DNA of 21,182 bases from a virus. Below the pieces are notes generated by a model. The model ran no database searches. It was not told the origin of the DNA and saw only the letters and a program-made list of their open reading frames with translations. The translations under genes were made by a program, and so were the position numbers. The stretch covers positions 7,638-28,819 of IMG/VR virus record IMGVR_UViG_3300039191_000483. One strand, 5' to 3'. This document shows, one piece after another, positions 511-19,068 of the stretch. Every line of letters begins with the position of its first letter. Within the stretch, counting starts at the first letter, position 1.

Positions 511-1116
511 TTATTTATAATCTTTAGTTTTAATATGTAAACCGCCTTTATACCACCTCTTAATACCGTTTGGGTATATCATAGCTGGCTTATCTCCATC
601 CCTGTGTAATTCACCATTTTGGTACCAATGCTTATAACCATCATAACCAATAACAGCTGGTTTGTCCCCATCCCTGTGTAGTAAGCCATTCTGATACCAA
701 TACTTACTTCCATTAGCCGTTATAACAGCTGGCTTATCTCCATCCCTGTGTAATTCACCATTTTGGTACCAAGCTTTACCCCCATCAGTTCTTATTATAG
801 CTGGTTTATCTCCTTCACGGTGTAATTTATCATGCTTATACCATTGCTTGGTTCCATTAGCCGTTATAACAGCTGGTTTGTCCCCATCCCTATGTAATTC
901 ACCATGTTTAACCCAAGCTTTACCCCCATCAGTTCTTATTAGAGCTGGCTTATCTCCATCTCGGTGGTGTAACCCATGCTTATACCAAGACTTAGTACCA
1001 TATTCATCAATGATTGGATTGTCATCCATATCATGATTATGATACTCACCATTGATATCAAAATAGTCAGATTCACCATCAGCATAGGTCATATGATATG
1101 TTTTATCATTAACCAT
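511..1116 (-). CDS. WYxxGxLHRDGDKPA 24-residue repeat protein (MORN-like), paralogue 1
   Basis: This 201-aa protein has a conserved leader (residues 1-43, including MTYADGESDYFDINGEYHNH) followed by six exact 24-residue repeats (residues 44-187) and a partial seventh ending in KTKDYK. Each repeat reads roughly WY[KQ][HN]GxLHR[DE]GDKPAxI then a variable x-G-x-K segment. Related tryptophan/glycine repeats, akin to MORN-repeat variants, are found in many bacteria and large DNA viruses; their role is poorly defined, and they may form an elongated beta-hairpin stack. There is no signal peptide or membrane segment. The gene starts 7 nt after the RNase R stop and is the longest of three paralogues in this window (others at 5263-5571 and 18586-19068). 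Confidence 0.85.
   Translation of the reverse strand: MVNDKTYHMTYADGESDYFDINGEYHNHDMDDNPIIDEYGTKSWYKHGLHHRDGDKPALIRTDGGKAWVKHGELHRDGDKPAVITANGTKQWYKHDKLHREGDKPAIIRTDGGKAWYQNGELHRDGDKPAVITANGSKYWYQNGLLHRDGDKPAVIGYDGYKHWYQNGELHRDGDKPAMIYPNGIKRWYKGGLHIKTKDYK
556..987 (-). repeat. six in-frame 72-bp tandem repeats within the repeat-protein gene
   Basis: Six 72-bp units encode the 24-residue repeats. The conserved DNA core of each unit, on the plus strand, is close to agctggcttatctccatcc. Units differ mainly in the codons before each tryptophan. A 40-nt stretch at 693-732 is identical to one in the distant paralogue at 18609-18648, which suggests exchange between loci. Confidence 0.85.
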
Positions 1117-1123
1117 CTTTAAA

Positions 1124-3067
1124 CTAATCTATCCAGAGGAATAAACCATCAATTGTTTTACGTTCAACATCAACTGCCTTAATAGTAATGTTAACCTTAT
1201 CACCTAATCGAACAACTCGACCCGTGTTATAACCTTTTATTTGGTGTTTATCTAATTCAGCAATATATGTATCGCCACCTATTTCAGATATCCTAACCAT
1301 ACATTCTGAACCAACATCTGGCATTTCAACGAACATACCATAATCGGTTATTGAACTTACAACACCTTTATAGACTTTACCAATTTTATCTTCCATATAA
1401 ATGCACTGCATATACTTGATAGAATCTCTTGAAGCTTTCTGTGCTTTCCTTTCCCTTTCGGACAAGTGTTTACACCTACCTTCAAGTCTTGAAGTGTTTG
1501 TTTCAGTCTTGTTCTCTAAATACCTTCCAAGCATTCTATGAACAATCACATCTGGATATCTTCTAATTGGAGATGTGAAATGTGAATAATGTTCAAAACC
1601 TAAACCATAATGTCCAATGTCCTCAGCAGTATATACTGCTTTTTGCATTGTTCTTATGACTAAGTTACTAATTATATTTTCCTCAGATGTACCTTTAACA
1701 TCATCTAATAGTTGATTAAGTGTGTTTGTTATCTCAACTGGATTATTCAACTTAATATCATATTCCAATGGACGGATAAACTCTTTCAAAGCAACTAGCT
1801 TCTCCATGTTAGGTTCATCGTGAGCTCTATTAACACAAGCACCTTTACTCTTAAGATATTGTGCAACCCTTCTGTTTGCCAGAAGCATATACTCTTCGAT
1901 TAACTTATTAGCATCCTTTGAGACCTTGAAGTCAATACCGATTGGTTGACTATCCTCATCCAATCTAAACCTAACCTCACGCTTATCAAATGATATTGAA
2001 CCACGAGTGAATCGCTTAGCTCTCATCTTCTTAGCTGTTTTATCTAGGTTAAGAACTGCTTGGTGTAACATTCCACTTGATACCATATCCTTCGGTAGAT
2101 TACCAAGCCCAACATTCTCTAAATTTGGATTTTCAATAATCTCTTGTGCTTCTTCATAGGTAAATCTATGGTTTGAGTGAATCACAGTCCTTCCGAACCA
2201 CTCATTCAACACATGTCCATTTTGGTCAAGTGTAAAGACTGCGGAGAAACATAACTTATCTTCATGTGGTCTCAATGAACATACACCGTTTGATAATCTC
2301 TCTGGAAGCATTGGTACCACCCTATCAACTAGATAGATTGACGTACCTCTTTTATATGCTTCCTTATCCAAAGAAGTGTCTGGCCTTACATAATGTGAGA
2401 CATCAGCAATGTGAACACCAACTTGCATTTTACCATTCACCCATTCAACACTCAAAGCATCATCAAAATCCTTTGCGGTTTCTGGGTCAATAGTGAATGT
2501 TAATACATCGCGCATGTCTCTACGCTTAGCTATTTCATCCTCTGGAATCTCCGTTGATATGATATTAGCTTCTGCTTCAACATATTCATCAAACTTGTAT
2601 GGTAAATCATACTCATGTAATATGGAATGAATTTCAGCTTCATTCTCACCAGCATTACCTAATACTTCAAGTATTTTACCATTAGGTGATTTAGCATCAT
2701 CTTTCCAATTGGTAATTTTACCAACAGCTTTTTGACCATCTTCACCACCTTTTAATTTACTAAGTGGTATGAATATATCAATCGGCATTTTATTTGAATC
2801 TGGAACTAGGAATGCATATCTATCTGAAACTTGTAAAGTTCCAACAAATTCATCCTTAAATCTTTCCAAGACCTCTATAATTTTACCTTCCATTGGTCTT
2901 CCCTTACCTACAATGACTTCAATCATTACTTGGTCAAGGTGTAAAGCTTTGTTAGTATTTTTTTTGTGAATGTAGATGTCTTTTGGTAAGTCATCACTCA
3001 CAAGGTAAGCTGAACCACTTGCGTTCATACTTAATCTTCCTTCTATTTTATCTCCTATTTTTATCAT
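1124..3067 (-). CDS. rnr: RNase R / RNase II-family 3'-5' exoribonuclease
   Basis: This is a processive 3'-to-5' exoribonuclease of the RNB family (647 aa). Residues 1-170 resemble the two cold-shock OB-folds. The RNB catalytic block contains DPETAKDFDDAL at about 194-205, with all four metal-binding aspartates (194, 200, 202, 203). It also has SNGVCSLRPHEDKLCFS and the hallmark HFTSPIRRYPDVIVHR with its catalytic arginines. A C-terminal S1 domain (GVVSSITDYGMFVEM) follows. It is shorter than E. coli RNase R (about 813 aa) because the N-terminal helix-turn-helix and the basic C-terminal tail are missing. The gene ends with TAG, so TAG is a true stop in this genome. It lies in an operon between an unknown charged protein and a repeat protein. 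In a phage it could degrade host mRNA, recycle nucleotides or help remodel RNA; that role is inferred. Confidence 0.95.
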   Translation of the reverse strand: MIKIGDKIEGRLSMNASGSAYLVSDDLPKDIYIHKKNTNKALHLDQVMIEVIVGKGRPMEGKIIEVLERFKDEFVGTLQVSDRYAFLVPDSNKMPIDIFIPLSKLKGGEDGQKAVGKITNWKDDAKSPNGKILEVLGNAGENEAEIHSILHEYDLPYKFDEYVEAEANIISTEIPEDEIAKRRDMRDVLTFTIDPETAKDFDDALSVEWVNGKMQVGVHIADVSHYVRPDTSLDKEAYKRGTSIYLVDRVVPMLPERLSNGVCSLRPHEDKLCFSAVFTLDQNGHVLNEWFGRTVIHSNHRFTYEEAQEIIENPNLENVGLGNLPKDMVSSGMLHQAVLNLDKTAKKMRAKRFTRGSISFDKREVRFRLDEDSQPIGIDFKVSKDANKLIEEYMLLANRRVAQYLKSKGACVNRAHDEPNMEKLVALKEFIRPLEYDIKLNNPVEITNTLNQLLDDVKGTSEENIISNLVIRTMQKAVYTAEDIGHYGLGFEHYSHFTSPIRRYPDVIVHRMLGRYLENKTETNTSRLEGRCKHLSERERKAQKASRDSIKYMQCIYMEDKIGKVYKGVVSSITDYGMFVEMPDVGSECMVRISEIGGDTYIAELDKHQIKGYNTGRVVRLGDKVNITIKAVDVERKTIDGLFLWID

Positions 3068-5237: not shown

Positions 5238-5264
5238 GAAAAAACCCTCAAAATTTGAGGGTTT
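5236..5264 (-). terminator. intrinsic terminator after repeat-protein paralogue 2
   Basis: A perfect 11-bp inverted repeat (aaaccctcaaa at 5242-5252 and tttgagggttt at 5254-5264) is followed, on the minus strand, by a T-rich tail (TTTTTTCTT). It overlaps the stop codon of the gene ending at 5263. This is the clearest rho-independent terminator in the window. Confidence 0.88.
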
Positions 5265-5571
5265 ATTTGATTTCAACTCTAATGCGTAAGCCATTCTGAT
5301 ACCAATACTTACTTCCATCAGCATATATAACCGCTGGCTTATCTCCATCTCGGTGTAGTAAAGCATTCTGATACCAAGACTTACCCCCATTAGGGTATAT
5401 CAGAGCTGGTTTATCATCATCTCTGTGTAATTGACCATGCTTATACCAAGACTTCCATTGAAGTATATCAATAATTGGTTCATCTAATTCATGATTATGG
5501 TACTCACCATTGATATCAAAATAGTCAGATTGACCATCGGCATAAATCATTTGTATTGGTTTATCAACCAT
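5263..5571 (-). CDS. WYxxGxLHRDGDKPA repeat protein, paralogue 2 (short)
   Basis: This 102-aa paralogue has the same leader as the other two copies (MIYADGQSDYFDINGEYHNH), two full 24-residue repeats (SWYKHGQLHRDDDKPAL and SWYQNALLHRDGDKPAV) and a partial third (WYQNGLRIRVEIK). The end of the third repeat is altered, as if truncated or recombined. I start it at the ATG at 5571-5569 (MVDKPIQM), which aligns with the other copies. This start overlaps the upstream zinc-motif gene by 8 nt. The stop lies inside the terminator hairpin, so this is the last gene of a long operon. Function unknown; see the paralogue at 511-1116. Confidence 0.82.
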   Translation of the reverse strand: MVDKPIQMIYADGQSDYFDINGEYHNHELDEPIIDILQWKSWYKHGQLHRDDDKPALIYPNGGKSWYQNALLHRDGDKPAVIYADGSKYWYQNGLRIRVEIK

Positions 5572-5806
5572 TTCTAGATTTAATACGATTAACAACCTCC
5601 ATTATAATATCATAACTAGCTGGGTCATCCTCTTTAATTTGATTTAATTCAAGAGACGATAATGGTTTTAGATTCAGTTCTTCGTCAAACTTATTGATAG
5701 CAGCACATTCGAAACATATTGAAATATCGTTAGGTTTAGGTGCATCATCGTGGTCAACACCAGTGGCACCATTTACTTCTGATTTACATTCTGGACAAAT
5801 TCTCAT
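5564..5806 (-). CDS. small zinc-binding protein (CxxC...CxxC)
   Basis: This 80-aa protein has two cysteine pairs, CPEC near residue 4 and CFEC near residue 31, which would bind one zinc ion as a zinc ribbon. A helical C-terminal half (LSSLELNQIKEDDPASYD) follows. Small proteins with this layout (CP.C..., a P..ND/GDI..C..C motif, then a helical tail) are common in phages and have no assigned role. The start lies 3 nt after the stop of a 31-residue membrane peptide. The end overlaps the next gene by 8 nt. Confidence 0.8.
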   Translation of the reverse strand: MRICPECKSEVNGATGVDHDDAPKPNDISICFECAAINKFDEELNLKPLSSLELNQIKEDDPASYDIIMEVVNRIKSRNG

Positions 5807-7241: not shown

Positions 7242-7646
7242 TTATTTTCCATACCAGCAATAAACTGGTCTAATTGCTACAATTGAATAACTATCACCAT
7301 CTACTTGACCCCAATCCTCAGTGTAAACTCTAAACCCTCTTTTATTATGACCATCATGTGACATATTAATATCCCATTTCCCAAGGGTGGGGAACTTCTC
7401 TCCTTCTTCTGACTTCAACCACTTCCATACAATGTCAGTAATTTCGTCTGAACTTAATGGAACTGGAAACTTGTTAGCACCAGATGAATCAGACCAATAA
7501 AGAATAAAACCTTTCTTCGGGTCAATCTTCCAAGCGGCAACTGTTTGCTCTTTATCATCATGATATTGACTCATAAGAGCAAGCTTTATAGTTGCAAGTA
7601 GTTGTCCTTTACTACTACCGTTTACATTGAAAACTATATTATCCAT
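7242..7646 (-). CDS. unknown 134-aa protein
   Basis: Function not recognised. The protein starts MDNIVFNVNGSSKGQLLATI with a helix likely at residues 12-30, then FILYWSDSSGANKFPVPL, an acidic helical stretch (SDEITDIVWKWLKSEEGEK) and a C-terminal beta-rich part (DGDSYSIVAIRPVYCWYGK). It has no membrane segment and no obvious metal site. The start overlaps the stop of the tRNA-binding protein gene (TAATG), so translation of the two is probably coupled. That pairing is the only hint to function. Confidence 0.72.
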   Translation of the reverse strand: MDNIVFNVNGSSKGQLLATIKLALMSQYHDDKEQTVAAWKIDPKKGFILYWSDSSGANKFPVPLSSDEITDIVWKWLKSEEGEKFPTLGKWDINMSHDGHNKRGFRVYTEDWGQVDGDSYSIVAIRPVYCWYGK

Positions 7647-7996
7647 TACATAAGTCTTCCACCGACTGAGAATTTCTCAAGTCCAAGTTCAACACTATCT
7701 CCAAATTGTGAAGGCATAATCATTACCTCACTAGTAACACCCATCATCTTCACTGGTTCTAAATTCATAACAAATGGAAATACCTCTCCACCGAATTCCT
7801 CACCATCAAACACTCCACCTAAATTGGTTACACATGTTTGAACAACCTCTGGGTTATCATCATCAAATGATATTGCAAGCTTTAATAACTTATCACTCCC
7901 TTCAATTTTTTCAACTTGAACAACTCGACCTAGTTGAATAACTAATTTGTCTGCCATATCGACAAACTCTTTAAATGTAATCTTTGCTTTTTCCAT
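7646..7996 (-). CDS. stand-alone tRNA-binding OB-fold protein (EMAPII / CsaA / Trbp111 type)
   Basis: This 116-aa protein matches the tRNA-binding domain otherwise found at the C-terminus of bacterial MetRS and as free CsaA/Trbp111 proteins of about 110 aa. The opening VIQLGRVVQVEKIEGSDKLL (residues 19-38) and the closing NLEPVKMMGVTSEVMI (78-93) carry the family hallmarks: RV..VE...., ADKL-like, and NL.P.K.MG..SE.MI. The fold binds structured RNA, usually the outer corner of tRNA, often as a dimer. No synthetase domain is attached. The gene sits just upstream of a coupled unknown gene and the SAK-type HAD phosphatase. In a phage it could protect, deliver or sequester tRNAs, which is inference. 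The family call rests on visible motifs. Confidence 0.85.
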   Translation of the reverse strand: MEKAKITFKEFVDMADKLVIQLGRVVQVEKIEGSDKLLKLAISFDDDNPEVVQTCVTNLGGVFDGEEFGGEVFPFVMNLEPVKMMGVTSEVMIMPSQFGDSVELGLEKFSVGGRLM

Positions 7997-9272: not shown

Positions 9273-9518
9273 TTAAAAATCTAATCGATAGACGGAATTA
9301 TATGTTTTGAATATTGTGAAATCATCACCTTCCTCAAGAATTTCTTTAACTAAAGATGTCTTAAAACCATCAGTTCCGTTATAATAATAGAATATAAAAC
9401 ATTGGTTAATTGTAGGCTCATTAGTGAAATAACCGATTTTTATACCATTACCGTTTGAGTTTGGAATCTCAGCTTCATCATGGGTTTCCAATTTGCTTAA
9501 TGTTCCACTATGTTCCAC
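9273..9518 (-). CDS. unknown 81-aa protein, GTG start
   Basis: This ORF reads (GTG)EHSGTLSKLETHDEAEI... and ends VYRLDF-TAA. There is no ATG in the first third, so GTG at 9518-9516 is the likely start; it overlaps the radical-SAM gene by 11 nt. The overlap contains a 10-nt near-direct repeat (GTGGAACATA/GTGGAACATT on the minus strand), which may have created the overlap by duplication. The sequence looks beta-rich (GIKIGYFTNEPTINQCFIFYY). Function not recognised. Confidence 0.6.
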   Translation of the reverse strand: MEHSGTLSKLETHDEAEIPNSNGNGIKIGYFTNEPTINQCFIFYYYNGTDGFKTSLVKEILEEGDDFTIFKTYNSVYRLDF

Positions 9519-10374
9519 TTTCTTTTTCTAATTGAGTTAAGAACTGCCCACAACTTGCACCTATATCGTTACCTGGTGGTTCATAATATTCAGCTGTATG
9601 TCCAGCATTTTCTAAAAATTCAATAAATTGACTAATGTCTAACAATGAGGCTTTTTTAACATCTAAAGCTTCTCTCTCAGAATACATCATAAACTTAATT
9701 GTACAACCTTTCCTAACTAGTTTAGATAGTTTATCAATATGATGTAACATACTATCATTAACTCCACGCATAATAGTATAATGAACCTCAATTGGATTGC
9801 CAGTCATACTATGGTAAAAATTCAAGGCATCAATTGATGGTTGAATATCTAATCCTGATGGCATCCACTCCTTTCGTTGTACATCGTCAACAAAGTGAAG
9901 ACTTAAATGTAGTTTCAAATCTAATCCTAAATCCTTAACAAAGTTTGTTAATTTAAAAAATTCAGTCCATTTGGATTTAGGTAGTAATGTTGCTAGACCA
10001 AACCTAACATGTTCATATTGACCTTTTAATAAAATCATACTGTCAACTACAGCTCCAGTATTATCCAACGGTTCACCGCAACCCATATATGATATGAGAA
10101 GAGTTCGATTATTTAATCCAAGTTCTTCAACAATATAATCAACACCTTCAACAATATTTTCTGGAGATAAGTTATTTAACTTTATCTTCCCAACGTGGTC
10201 GGTCAAATGACAAAACTTACAACTCATATTACACATAGTTTGACATGGTACACAGATAATATCTTTACCACTACCATTATCAACATATGAGAATTCAATG
10301 ATTTGTTTATTTAATTCGAAGATATACTTTATCGTCTTATCAATCTCTGATTTTATAATTTGTTTTAATTCCAT
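9508..10374 (-). CDS. rlmN: short RlmN/Cfr-family radical-SAM RNA methyltransferase
   Basis: The N-terminal cluster ICVPCQTMCNMSCKFC contains the three iron-sulfur cysteines (48, 52, 55) of CxxxCxxC, plus Cys41 exactly seven residues before, equivalent to E. coli RlmN Cys118. The C-terminus has DIGASCGQF (Cys275), equivalent to Cys355, the residue that carries the methyl group. MGCGEPLDN, SLHFVDDVQRKEWMPS and the IMRGVNDS segment match RlmN landmarks. The protein therefore keeps the full machinery for C2 (or C8) adenine methylation. At 288 aa it is about 100 residues shorter than RlmN, because the N-terminal accessory RNA-binding region is almost absent. The gene follows IF-3 by 2 nt. The RNA target is unknown; host rRNA, tRNA or phage RNA are all open. 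Confidence 0.9.
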   Translation of the reverse strand: MELKQIIKSEIDKTIKYIFELNKQIIEFSYVDNGSGKDIICVPCQTMCNMSCKFCHLTDHVGKIKLNNLSPENIVEGVDYIVEELGLNNRTLLISYMGCGEPLDNTGAVVDSMILLKGQYEHVRFGLATLLPKSKWTEFFKLTNFVKDLGLDLKLHLSLHFVDDVQRKEWMPSGLDIQPSIDALNFYHSMTGNPIEVHYTIMRGVNDSMLHHIDKLSKLVRKGCTIKFMMYSEREALDVKKASLLDISQFIEFLENAGHTAEYYEPPGNDIGASCGQFLTQLEKESGT

Positions 10375-10376
10375 TA

Positions 10377-10934
10377 TTATTTTTTTTCTTCTTTTTTGGG
10401 TTTAAAGAATATATTCATTTTTCTACCATCCATTTTTGGCATCTTTTCAACTGTAGCGTAATCTTCTAATGCAACGGCCAATTCAAGAAGTAACTTTTCA
10501 CCTTGTTCTCTAAATCTATTCTCACGACCTTTGAAGAATACGAAAGCTTTAACCTTATGACCTTTCTTTAAAAAATTAATAATGTGATTTGTTTTAAATT
10601 TCAAATCATTCTCATCAGTAGTAGGTCTAAATCGCATCTCTTTCATCGGCTTAGACTTCTGAGCTGGTTTCTTCTTATTTTGTTCGTAAAGATATTTAGA
10701 ATAGTCCATCAACTTAACAACTGGTGGTGCAGCCTTAGCACCAACAAGTACTAAATCTTTACCTTCATTCTCAGCAACTTTTAGTGCTTCGTTAATTCCC
10801 ATGATTTCTGGTTCACCATTTTCAGAAACAAGTTTAACATCACTACCGTTAATTTCCCTGATGATTTCTCGGTTAATTCTGTGAGGATTTTTCTTAATTT
10901 CTCTTTTTTGATTTCTTCTGTGACGTTTAGCCAT
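10377..10934 (-). CDS. infC: translation initiation factor IF-3
   Basis: This is a full two-domain IF-3 (185 aa). The N-domain runs from about residue 18 (RINREIIREINGSDVKLVSENG) through APPVVKLMDYSKYLYEQ, with a basic linker after it. The C-domain carries MKEMRFRPTTDENDLKFK, FLKKGHKVKAFVFFKGRE and a KPKKEEKK tail. IF-3 binds the 30S subunit, prevents early 70S assembly and checks start codon and initiator tRNA. Its start overlaps the Nudix gene by 8 nt (ATGGCTAA). It begins with ATG, not the rare AUU by which cellular infC is typically autoregulated, so that control is likely lost. IF-3 is rare in phages. It may bias host ribosomes toward phage mRNAs, which is inference. Confidence 0.95.
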   Translation of the reverse strand: MAKRHRRNQKREIKKNPHRINREIIREINGSDVKLVSENGEPEIMGINEALKVAENEGKDLVLVGAKAAPPVVKLMDYSKYLYEQNKKKPAQKSKPMKEMRFRPTTDENDLKFKTNHIINFLKKGHKVKAFVFFKGRENRFREQGEKLLLELAVALEDYATVEKMPKMDGRKMNIFFKPKKEEKK

Positions 10935-16098: not shown

Positions 16099-16944
16099 TT
16101 AATCACAATTTGATGGAATTAAATCATATAGATAATCCCAATCTTGAGTGAATATTGGTGTATCATAATCTATAACCCATTTTTTACGTAAAACTGTTGA
16201 ACTAGGTTCTATTGTATTAGAACCTTCTAAATCACCTCTACTTGTCGGAAGCTCGACTTCAATCTTTTTAATAATGGCACCACGTTTATACTTAGTGATG
16301 TAATCATTCCAGTTAACACCCTTCTGAAACATCATCTCTTGTTTCTCATCGGATGATTTACCCATCAATTCTTTGTGTGAGTATAAAGCATCTGCTGCCA
16401 TACTAATTGAGTTCCTAGTAGCATCTTGCTGTCTCCAAACAATACAGTTTGCGACCTCTTTAATGTGTGGTATAACATAAACTCTGGAATCAAACTCAAC
16501 ATCAACTAATAAATCACCTTTTAAAAGGTCATTAACTAACACACCACTATCTTCGTATGTGTCGTATTTATGAGCTTTTAATAATGTTAACTTCTTATTA
16601 AATGAAGCGGTTGCCCTTGCTGCTGTAAGTGAGCAAATCTTTTGAACCTTACCTTTAAACATAGCTTCTTGGTTCTCACCAAAATCGGTGAAGACCAATG
16701 TAATCTCATCTGATTGGGTGTATGCGAATGCTGGGTTGAATTTCTTACACATTTCAACAGCTGCATCATTCATTGCCTCAGAAAAATCTGGGTCAAATGG
16801 TTTGTTCATCCCTTTGGTGAACTTTGAGAAACCTCTACCATCAACACGTACAATAGTATATGTCCTTGGTGGAATCATAGTACTATAACAAGCCTCATAG
16901 TGTTTCATACGTGAACTTAAATTATTTTTTCCATTTATACCCAT
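16099..16944 (-). CDS. thg1: Thg1-type 3'-5' RNA polymerase (tRNA-His guanylyltransferase-like)
   Basis: This 281-aa protein has the Thg1 catalytic signatures: PRTYTIVRVDGRGFSKFTK (Asp35, metal site A), FAYTQSDEITLVF (Asp79/Glu80), and IVWRQQDATRNSI (about 168-180), with RGAIIKK further on. Thg1 adds a guanosine to the 5' end of tRNA-His. Thg1-like proteins in bacteria and phages instead repair 5'-truncated tRNAs by 3'-to-5' polymerisation. The frameshifted stub upstream runs into this gene, so the true start may be the ATG at 16944 (its LSSRMKHYE aligns with the family) or the ATG at 16908. The gene lies downstream of prs and a HAD. A tRNA-repair role fits the context but is inferred. Confidence 0.93.
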   Translation of the reverse strand: MGINGKNNLSSRMKHYEACYSTMIPPRTYTIVRVDGRGFSKFTKGMNKPFDPDFSEAMNDAAVEMCKKFNPAFAYTQSDEITLVFTDFGENQEAMFKGKVQKICSLTAARATASFNKKLTLLKAHKYDTYEDSGVLVNDLLKGDLLVDVEFDSRVYVIPHIKEVANCIVWRQQDATRNSISMAADALYSHKELMGKSSDEKQEMMFQKGVNWNDYITKYKRGAIIKKIEVELPTSRGDLEGSNTIEPSSTVLRKKWVIDYDTPIFTQDWDYLYDLIPSNCD

Positions 16945-18585: not shown

Positions 18586-19068
18586 TTATTTAATAAATTT
18601 ATCATTACGATACCAATACTTACTTCCATTAGCCGTTATAACAGCTGGTCCACCATCCCTGTGTGATTTACCATTCTGATACCACATTTTACTCCCAGTA
18701 GACAATATCATAGCTGGCTTATCTCCATCACGGTGTAGTAAACCATTCTGATACCAATGCATTTCTCCATTTGGATGAGTCACAGCTGGACCACATTCCA
18801 TAGTTCCATTGACATGTATAATAGCTGGCTTATCTCCTTCACGGTGTAGTAAGCCATTCTGATACCAAAAATATTCACCATCTGATGAAATAGCAGCTGG
18901 CTTATCTCCATCACGATGGCGTAAACCATGCTTATACCAAGACTTAGTACCATATTCGTCAATGATTGGATTGTCATCCATATCATGATTATGGTACTCA
19001 CCATTGATATCAAACCAATCACTATCACCATCAGCATAAGTCATTTGATATATTTTATCACCAATCAT
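18586..19068 (-). CDS. WYxxGxLHRDGDKPA repeat protein, paralogue 3
   Basis: This 160-aa paralogue has the same leader as the other two copies (MTYADGDSDWFDINGEYHNH), then repeats WYKHGLRHRDGDKPAAI and WYQNGLLHREGDKPAII. A unit lacking 11 residues follows (CGPAVTHPNGEMH, missing the WY..GxLHR part), then WYQNGLLHRDGDKPAMI, WYQNGKSHRDGGPAVI (one residue short) and a partial WYRNDKFIK. The 33-nt loss keeps the frame, so these genes appear to change by unit recombination. The start is 4 nt after a strong -7 element. It is the first gene of the operon with prs. Function unknown. Confidence 0.84.
   Translation of the reverse strand: MIGDKIYQMTYADGDSDWFDINGEYHNHDMDDNPIIDEYGTKSWYKHGLRHRDGDKPAAISSDGEYFWYQNGLLHREGDKPAIIHVNGTMECGPAVTHPNGEMHWYQNGLLHRDGDKPAMILSTGSKMWYQNGKSHRDGGPAVITANGSKYWYRNDKFIK

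What the first reader, a model, noticed from the sequence alone, without database searches (positions are those of the whole stretch)
9508..10374. Minimal RlmN/Cfr-type methylase that keeps all five functional cysteines but lacks most of the N-terminal RNA-binding region
C41, C48/C52/C55 and C275 match E. coli RlmN C118, C125/C129/C132 and C355 in spacing and context. The enzyme should therefore be chemically complete, yet it is about 100 residues shorter, so recognition of RNA must differ. A phage methylase for rRNA or tRNA beside IF-3 suggests ribosome modification during infection, or masking from a host nuclease.
Basis: partly seen in the sequence, partly recalled or inferred. Interest (0 to 1): 0.75.

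Follow-up and report, generated by a model that had tools for sequence, protein, structure and literature searches.

The report
Short phage RlmN-like radical methylase
A large bacterial virus carries a stripped-down relative of the enzyme that puts a methyl group on adenosine in ribosomal and transfer RNA; it keeps the chemical machinery but not the domain that grips the RNA, and it belongs to an old, widespread and apparently unstudied set of phage enzymes.

Summary
Window 9508-10374 (-) encodes a 288-aa radical-SAM protein whose best model is RlmN (E 6e-33) and whose predicted fold (pLDDT 91.5) is closest to RlmN crystal structures (TM 0.81-0.84), then Cfr (0.69). E27, C41, C48/C52/C55, M97 and C275 align with RlmN E105, C118, C125/129/132, M176 and C355. 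The N-terminal RNA-binding domain (about 77-80 residues) is truly absent: IF-3 ends 2 nt upstream, and no RlmN_N domain was found in 19 phage records carrying such genes. It is not unique. At least three well-supported lineages of short RlmN-like proteins occur in large phages; the window lies in one (25 tree rows, support 99/99) separate from cellular RlmN and Cfr. Residues that contact substrate in Cfr are replaced by other, lineage-invariant residues, and the lineage is mildly acidic. A second lineage lacks the resolving cysteine altogether. IF-3 is adjacent only in the window and close to it in one 62%-identical relative, so that clue is weak. Best reading: an active class A radical-SAM adenosine methylase with different substrate recognition, most likely acting on tRNA; the substrate is unproven. 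New variant of a known kind.

The parts
9508..10374 (-). Short RlmN-like class A radical SAM methylase, 288 aa
   Evidence: TIGR00048 E 5.7e-33; Pfam Radical_SAM E 1.5e-9; AF2 pLDDT 91.5; Foldseek RlmN TM 0.81-0.84
10294..10296 (-). E27, equivalent of RlmN E105 (base that activates the methyl-carrier Cys)
   Evidence: Alignment; invariant in lineages A, B and C; role from PMC9692996
10252..10254 (-). C41, equivalent of RlmN C118 / Cfr C105 (resolving cysteine)
   Evidence: Alignment; present in 21 of 24 lineage A rows counted
10210..10233 (-). CxxxCxxC (C48, C52, C55), [4Fe-4S] cluster motif
   Evidence: Invariant in all short forms aligned
10069..10086 (-). MGCGEP (97-102), SAM-binding GGE-type motif; M97 = RlmN M176
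   Evidence: Alignment
9550..9552 (-). C275, equivalent of RlmN C355 / Cfr C338 (methyl-carrier cysteine)
   Evidence: Invariant in all short lineages
10377..10934 (-). Translation initiation factor IF-3, immediately upstream, 2-nt gap
   Evidence: TIGR00168 160 bits, cut-off 60
7646..7996 (-). Stand-alone tRNA-binding (MetG C-terminal type) protein; possible but unproven partner
   Evidence: PF01588 E 1e-12; in 2 of 19 phage records searched
16099..16944 (-). Thg1-type tRNA-His guanylyltransferase
   Evidence: phrog_4717 E 2.5e-72
1124..3067 (-). RNase R
   Evidence: TIGR02063 678 bits, cut-off 598

Best explanation
The gene makes an active, single-domain class A radical-SAM methylase. As in RlmN (inferred from residue conservation), C275 is first methylated by SAM with E27 as base. 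A second SAM, cleaved at the [4Fe-4S] cluster on C48/C52/C55, gives the 5'-deoxyadenosyl radical that activates methyl-C275, which adds to an sp2 carbon (C2 or C8) of an adenine; C41 then resolves the covalent adduct. Shown here: the protein, its fold class by prediction, the conserved catalytic residues, the absent N-terminal RNA-binding domain, and the separate phage lineage. Inferred: that it is active; that the substrate is a tRNA adenosine (A37-type) read through the radical-SAM domain alone or with a partner; that this adjusts phage or host tRNAs during infection. Likelihoods: class A chemistry about 0.8; RNA substrate about 0.75; tRNA in particular about 0.45.
For: All RlmN catalytic residues present (roles from PMC9692996, PMC13001441). 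Confident model closest to RlmN. E27, the cluster cysteines, M97 and C275 are kept across lineages, i.e. under selection. Lineage A is old and coherent. RNA/tRNA context in the window's own record: IF-3, RNase R, a tRNA-binding protein, Thg1, SmpB. 16 of 19 searched phage records carry tRNA genes; the closest relative (L002) has 61, and 50 of the 55 with an assigned amino acid in the fetched segments have A37.
Against: RlmN uses contacts to the D-arm and acceptor end and does not modify an anticodon stem-loop alone (PMC5130265); the short form lacks the N-domain and is acidic (window net -10; lineage A median -4.5; cellular RlmN median +3). The target-ribose Arg (RlmN R344 / Cfr R327) is lost in all three short lineages. 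Some phages with the gene have almost no tRNAs (L046 record 1, 201phi2-1 record 1). Neighbourhoods are not conserved across lineage A. No activity data.
Confidence: 0.45

Rival explanations
1. It is a rRNA methylase acting at or near A2503 of 23S rRNA, like RlmN or Cfr, changing ribosomes during infection.
For: Fold and catalytic residues match; IF-3 neighbour in two related phages.
Against: RlmN_N (PF21016) absent in 19 phage records while 10 of 14 control genomes ring; that domain anchors H91/H92 and truncated Cfr is non-functional (PMC13001441, PMC8752094). Cfr and RlmN act on naked 23S rRNA, which needs new rRNA synthesis. Bacteria generally have RlmN already (21 of 21 genomes sampled). 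Substrate-contact residues differ.
Confidence: 0.2
2. It methylates a small adenine compound (nucleotide, cofactor, signalling nucleotide) or another substrate that is not structured RNA; the RNA grip was lost because it is not needed.
For: N-domain absent in three lineages; net charge acidic; ribose/phosphate contacts of Cfr replaced by lineage-specific invariant residues (K154, H156, E196, H198, E262, Y264, P267). Prs in the window and Prs/NAMPT beside the lineage C gene in a Vibrio phage.
Against: All characterised close relatives modify RNA (PMC9692996). Nucleotide-metabolism neighbours are common in large phages and not conserved here.
Confidence: 0.2
3. It needs a trans-acting RNA-binding partner (for example the tRNA-binding protein at 7646-7996), so the enzyme is a two-piece RlmN.
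For: tRNA_bind protein 1.5 kb away in both the window and L002.
Against: That protein is found in only 2 of 19 phage records with the gene; no other conserved neighbour.
Confidence: 0.08
4. A relic or non-catalytic protein that no longer methylates.
For: Resolving Cys lost in lineage B and in L037, L038, L046.
Against: The window's lineage keeps the full catalytic set, bar those three rows, over deep divergence.
Confidence: 0.07

Closest known systems
RlmN (E. coli, TIGR00048; 3RFA, 5HR6/5HR7)
   Same: Radical SAM core, CxxxCxxC, E105/C118/M176/C355 equivalents, beta-extension, C-terminal segment with the methyl-carrier Cys; about 25% identity over the core
   Different: No N-terminal helical RNA-binding domain, shorter C-terminus, R344/R347 and other substrate-contact residues replaced, scores below the RlmN cut-off (114 vs 290 bits), acidic
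Cfr (9p0p; NF000424)
   Same: Same catalytic cysteines and mechanism class
   Different: More distant (TM 0.69, E 3e-18 by profile); no HhH2 N-domain; Cfr substrate-contact residues mostly not conserved
phrog_27142 'Fe-S-cluster redox domain-containing' (201phi2-1, CcrPW; lineage B)
   Same: Short phage RlmN-like proteins without the N-domain, methyl-carrier Cys kept
   Different: Lineage B has Tyr where the window has the resolving C41; the window matches this family only remotely (73 bits against about 600 for 201phi2-1)
Plant RLMNL1-3 (PMC10838301)
   Same: RlmN relatives that split rRNA and tRNA substrates
   Different: Highly similar to E. coli RlmN by BLAST; not reported as short forms

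Membership tests
Class A radical SAM methylases (RlmN/Cfr type) | CxxxCxxC cluster motif in a radical SAM core | tested here: met
Class A radical SAM methylases (RlmN/Cfr type) | Two catalytic cysteines: methyl carrier (C355) and resolving (C118), with E105 | tested here: met
   C275, C41, E27
Class A radical SAM methylases (RlmN/Cfr type) | Methyl transfer to an sp2 carbon of adenine | not testable with these tools
   Needs biochemistry
RlmN (TIGR00048 equivalog) | Score above curated cut-off (290 bits) | tested here: not met
   114 bits
RlmN (TIGR00048 equivalog) | N-terminal helical RNA-binding domain (PF21016 RlmN_N) | tested here: not met
   Absent from the protein and from 19 phage records
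RlmN (TIGR00048 equivalog) | Falls inside the cellular RlmN clade | tested here: not met
   Separate lineage A, 99/99; cellular RlmN plus Cfr 99/97
RlmN (TIGR00048 equivalog) | Makes m2A2503 in 23S rRNA and m2A37 in tRNA | not testable with these tools
   Needs mass spectrometry
Cfr | Score above curated cut-off (530 bits, NF000424) | tested here: not met
   66 bits
Cfr | C8 specificity and antibiotic-resistance phenotype | not testable with these tools
   Needs biochemistry
phrog_27142 | Strong match to the family profile | tested here: inconclusive
   Full-length but remote, 73 bits, E 7e-20, against about 600 bits for its own members

The most novel reading that the evidence does not exclude
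Large phages hold an old radiation of N-domain-less class A methylases that have left the RlmN/Cfr substrates. The window's lineage modifies a different target (a phage-specific RNA site or a small adenine compound), while lineage B, which lacks the resolving cysteine and in CcrPW and pMPPla107 has only four cysteines in all, either forms a lasting covalent adduct with its target or resolves it by chemistry not yet described.
Probability: 0.2. Interest if true: 0.8.

Novelty: new variant of a known kind. Interest (0 to 1): 0.5.

Why it matters
RlmN and Cfr are the models for methylation of unactivated adenine carbons, and both hold their RNA with an N-terminal domain. A natural set of enzymes that keeps the chemistry without that domain separates catalysis from recognition, gives small proteins for structure and mechanism work, and offers natural counterparts of the C118A mutant (lineage B). 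If the target is tRNA, it would be a phage-encoded editor of position-37-type adenosines in phages that bring their own tRNAs.

Tried and rejected
1) Sequencing or start-site artefact hiding an N-domain: rejected (open frame 297 aa; IF-3 2 nt upstream). 2) N-domain encoded separately: no RlmN_N in 19 phage records, with positive controls. 3) IF-3 linkage as a family trait: only in the window and L002 by BLAST of about 90 loci; 5 of 19 records carry IF-3 anywhere, one more of them (L040's) about 5 kb from the methylase. 4) tRNA genes close to the gene: rare in lineage A (1 of 26 loci, L026), more frequent in lineage C; not decisive. 5) Conserved neighbours in lineage A: none beyond Thg1 in four loci (WIN/L002 and L037/L038); Pfam counts of 118 neighbours show mixed nucleotide-metabolism and other phage genes. 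6) Cellular origin: profile searches of 100 genomes of one phylum returned mainly ordinary RlmN-length frames; no clear short lineage A gene among the best-scoring ones, but not every match was inspected. The one genome-contig hit (L017, Agitococcus MAG, 21% identity) is a long, uncertain branch. 7) Faecal 'phage' records: the one examined (H3/L012) is a full-length bacterial-type RlmN (342 aa) beside a RsmB-like gene, so likely host DNA. 8) phmmer matches of residues 181-258 to unrelated large proteins at E 0.003-0.07: judged chance, not pursued. 9) Monophyly of all short forms: the free tree places lineage C with RlmN/Cfr, but one short clade is not rejected (AU p 0.127), so the direction of N-domain gain or loss is open.

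Full report
What is there. Window 9508-10374, minus strand, is a 288-aa ORF starting at ATG. The window is 21 kb of a 28.8-kb IMG/VR virus record. Best family models: TIGR00048 RlmN E 5.7e-33 over profile positions 76-343 of 355, then Cfr models at E 3e-18 to 4e-16; Pfam gives only Radical_SAM. The RlmN score (114 bits) is far below the equivalog cut-off (290). E27 and M97 also align with E105 and M176, which matter for activating the carrier cysteine and stabilising its radical (PMC9692996). A structure predicted from 24 aligned relatives has mean pLDDT 91.5; the nearest solved folds are RlmN entries (TM by query 0.78-0.84, E 1e-19 to 1e-15), then Cfr (0.69, E 2e-10), then other radical SAM enzymes.

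What is missing. The protein starts at the beta-strand extension that precedes the radical SAM barrel. The N-terminal helical domain (about 77-80 residues in E. coli RlmN) is absent, and about 16 residues fewer follow the last catalytic Cys. It cannot be hidden: the open frame is 297 codons stop to stop and IF-3 ends 2 nt upstream. RlmN_N (PF21016) was found in none of 19 phage records with such genes, while 10 of 14 control genomes gave a match; several of those records may be fragments. In Cfr the N-domain is an HhH2 fold that anchors helices H91/H92 (PMC13001441); N-terminally truncated Cfr does not confer resistance (PMC8752094); RlmN contacts tRNA at the D-arm and acceptor end and does not modify an isolated anticodon stem-loop (PMC5130265).

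Not a singleton. tblastn finds short homologues in Tunturi_5, 201phi2-1, Psa21, Phabio, CcrPW, CcrColossus, Vibrio, Salmonella, Aeromonas and Stenotrophomonas phages. A profile scan of viral contigs gave 193 relatives, of which the best 80 were kept. In lineage A rows the first cluster Cys lies at residue 30-69, in cellular RlmN comparators at about 111-154. Starts were chosen automatically, so single positions may be off; one lineage C frame, L050, reads 122. A maximum-likelihood tree of 68 rows gives: lineage A with the window (25 rows, 99/99); lineage B (7 rows, 100/100: phiKZ-like phages, CcrPW, an IMG/VR contig, and two plasmids, in Rhizobium and Pseudomonas); lineage C (17 rows, 100/100); cellular RlmN plus Cfr (99/97). 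The split A+B against C+RlmN+Cfr has 99/96, but one clade of all short forms is not rejected (AU p 0.127). The window protein is therefore no recent host truncation. The only PHROG it matches well, 27142, is built around lineage B (about 600 bits for 201phi2-1, 73 for the window).

Active site and substrate face. E105, CxxxCxxC, M176 and C355 equivalents are kept in lineages A, B and C. The resolving Cys is kept in C (17 of 17) and in most of A (21 of 24 rows counted; Val in L037, L038, L046), but is Tyr in all of B; CcrPW and pMPPla107 proteins contain just four cysteines, those of the cluster plus the carrier. Parsimony needs three changes of this trait on the tree. Mapping the Cfr residues reported to contact rRNA (PMC13001441) onto the alignment shows that most differ and that each short lineage has its own invariant residues there. 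In lineage A these are K37, L93, S95, K154, H156, E196, E262, Y264, P267 (Cfr W101, S151, S153, N208, T210, Y252, T325, R327, F330); neighbouring H198 is invariant too. S95 is the one that matches Cfr. The Arg that contacts the target ribose (RlmN R344, Cfr R327) is lost in all three. Median net charge: A -4.5, B -2, C -6, cellular RlmN +3; window -10. The mapping rests on an alignment at roughly 25% identity, so single positions are tentative; the pattern as a whole is clear. Substrate recognition has been rebuilt, not just trimmed.

Surroundings. The window's record is rich in RNA and translation genes: IF-3, RNase R, a stand-alone tRNA-binding protein, Thg1, a HAD domain of RNA-repair type, and SmpB upstream of the window. 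The 362-kb relative L002 (62% identity in the methylase) keeps IF-3, Nudix, AAA ATPase, Thg1 and the tRNA-binding protein in the same order, with one ORF inserted between IF-3 and the methylase. Outside this pair the neighbourhood is not kept; IF-3 is in 5 of 19 records, the tRNA-binding protein in 2. Most of these phages carry tRNA genes (16 of 19 records; 61 in L002's phage), but two large ones have one each. These points favour tRNA modestly and do not settle it.

Mechanism and rivals. I take class A methylation chemistry as likely (about 0.8): selection has kept the full set of chemical residues through deep divergence. A RNA substrate is likely by descent (about 0.75), tRNA more than rRNA. 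The rRNA case suffers from the missing anchor domain, from the need for naked 23S rRNA (PMC13001441), and from the RlmN that bacteria already have (21 of 21 genomes of one phylum; the actual host is unknown). A small-molecule substrate is not excluded and would fit the charge change. Nuclease masking has no support in these data.

Novelty. The searches made of the held open-access literature turned up no study of phage RlmN-like enzymes; most subscription papers are not covered. Sequence databases do annotate members as RlmN or 'Fe-S-cluster redox', so this is a new variant of a known kind rather than a new kind.

Noticed in passing
L004, L005, L006, L013, L045, L098, L099 (lineage B): Short RlmN-like proteins of phiKZ-like phages, CcrPW and two plasmids have Tyr in place of the resolving cysteine but keep the methyl-carrier cysteine; two have only four cysteines in all. 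Natural counterparts of the RlmN C118A mutant.
   Followed up: partly
L117 5349-5906 (record, upstream of the window) and window 1124-3067: The phage encodes both SmpB and RNase R, partners in trans-translation, but no tmRNA was found in the 28.8 kb.
   Followed up: partly
L026 8560-9118: A lineage A locus carries a tRNA-Met and a tmRNA gene about 3 kb downstream of the methylase.
   Followed up: no
L131-L135 (L002's phage): Of 56 predicted tRNAs in the fetched segments, 50 have A37, including Leu anticodons UAG, AAG, GAG and one Pro UGG, which to my knowledge normally carry G37 in bacteria.
   Followed up: partly
window 511-1116, 5263-5595, 18586-19068: Three ORFs made of tandem 'WYxNGxLHRDGDKPA' repeats, a repeated paralogous family in this phage.
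   Followed up: no
window 16099-16944; L037 7060-7812; L038 6757-7521; L081 7793-8932: Thg1-type guanylyltransferase lies within about 6 kb of a short RlmN-like gene in three separate groups; CcrPW and CcrColossus have it about 10 kb away. Not tested for significance.
   Followed up: partly
L008 115-4918: In a Vibrio phage the lineage C gene follows a ribose-phosphate pyrophosphokinase and a nicotinamide phosphoribosyltransferase.
   Followed up: no
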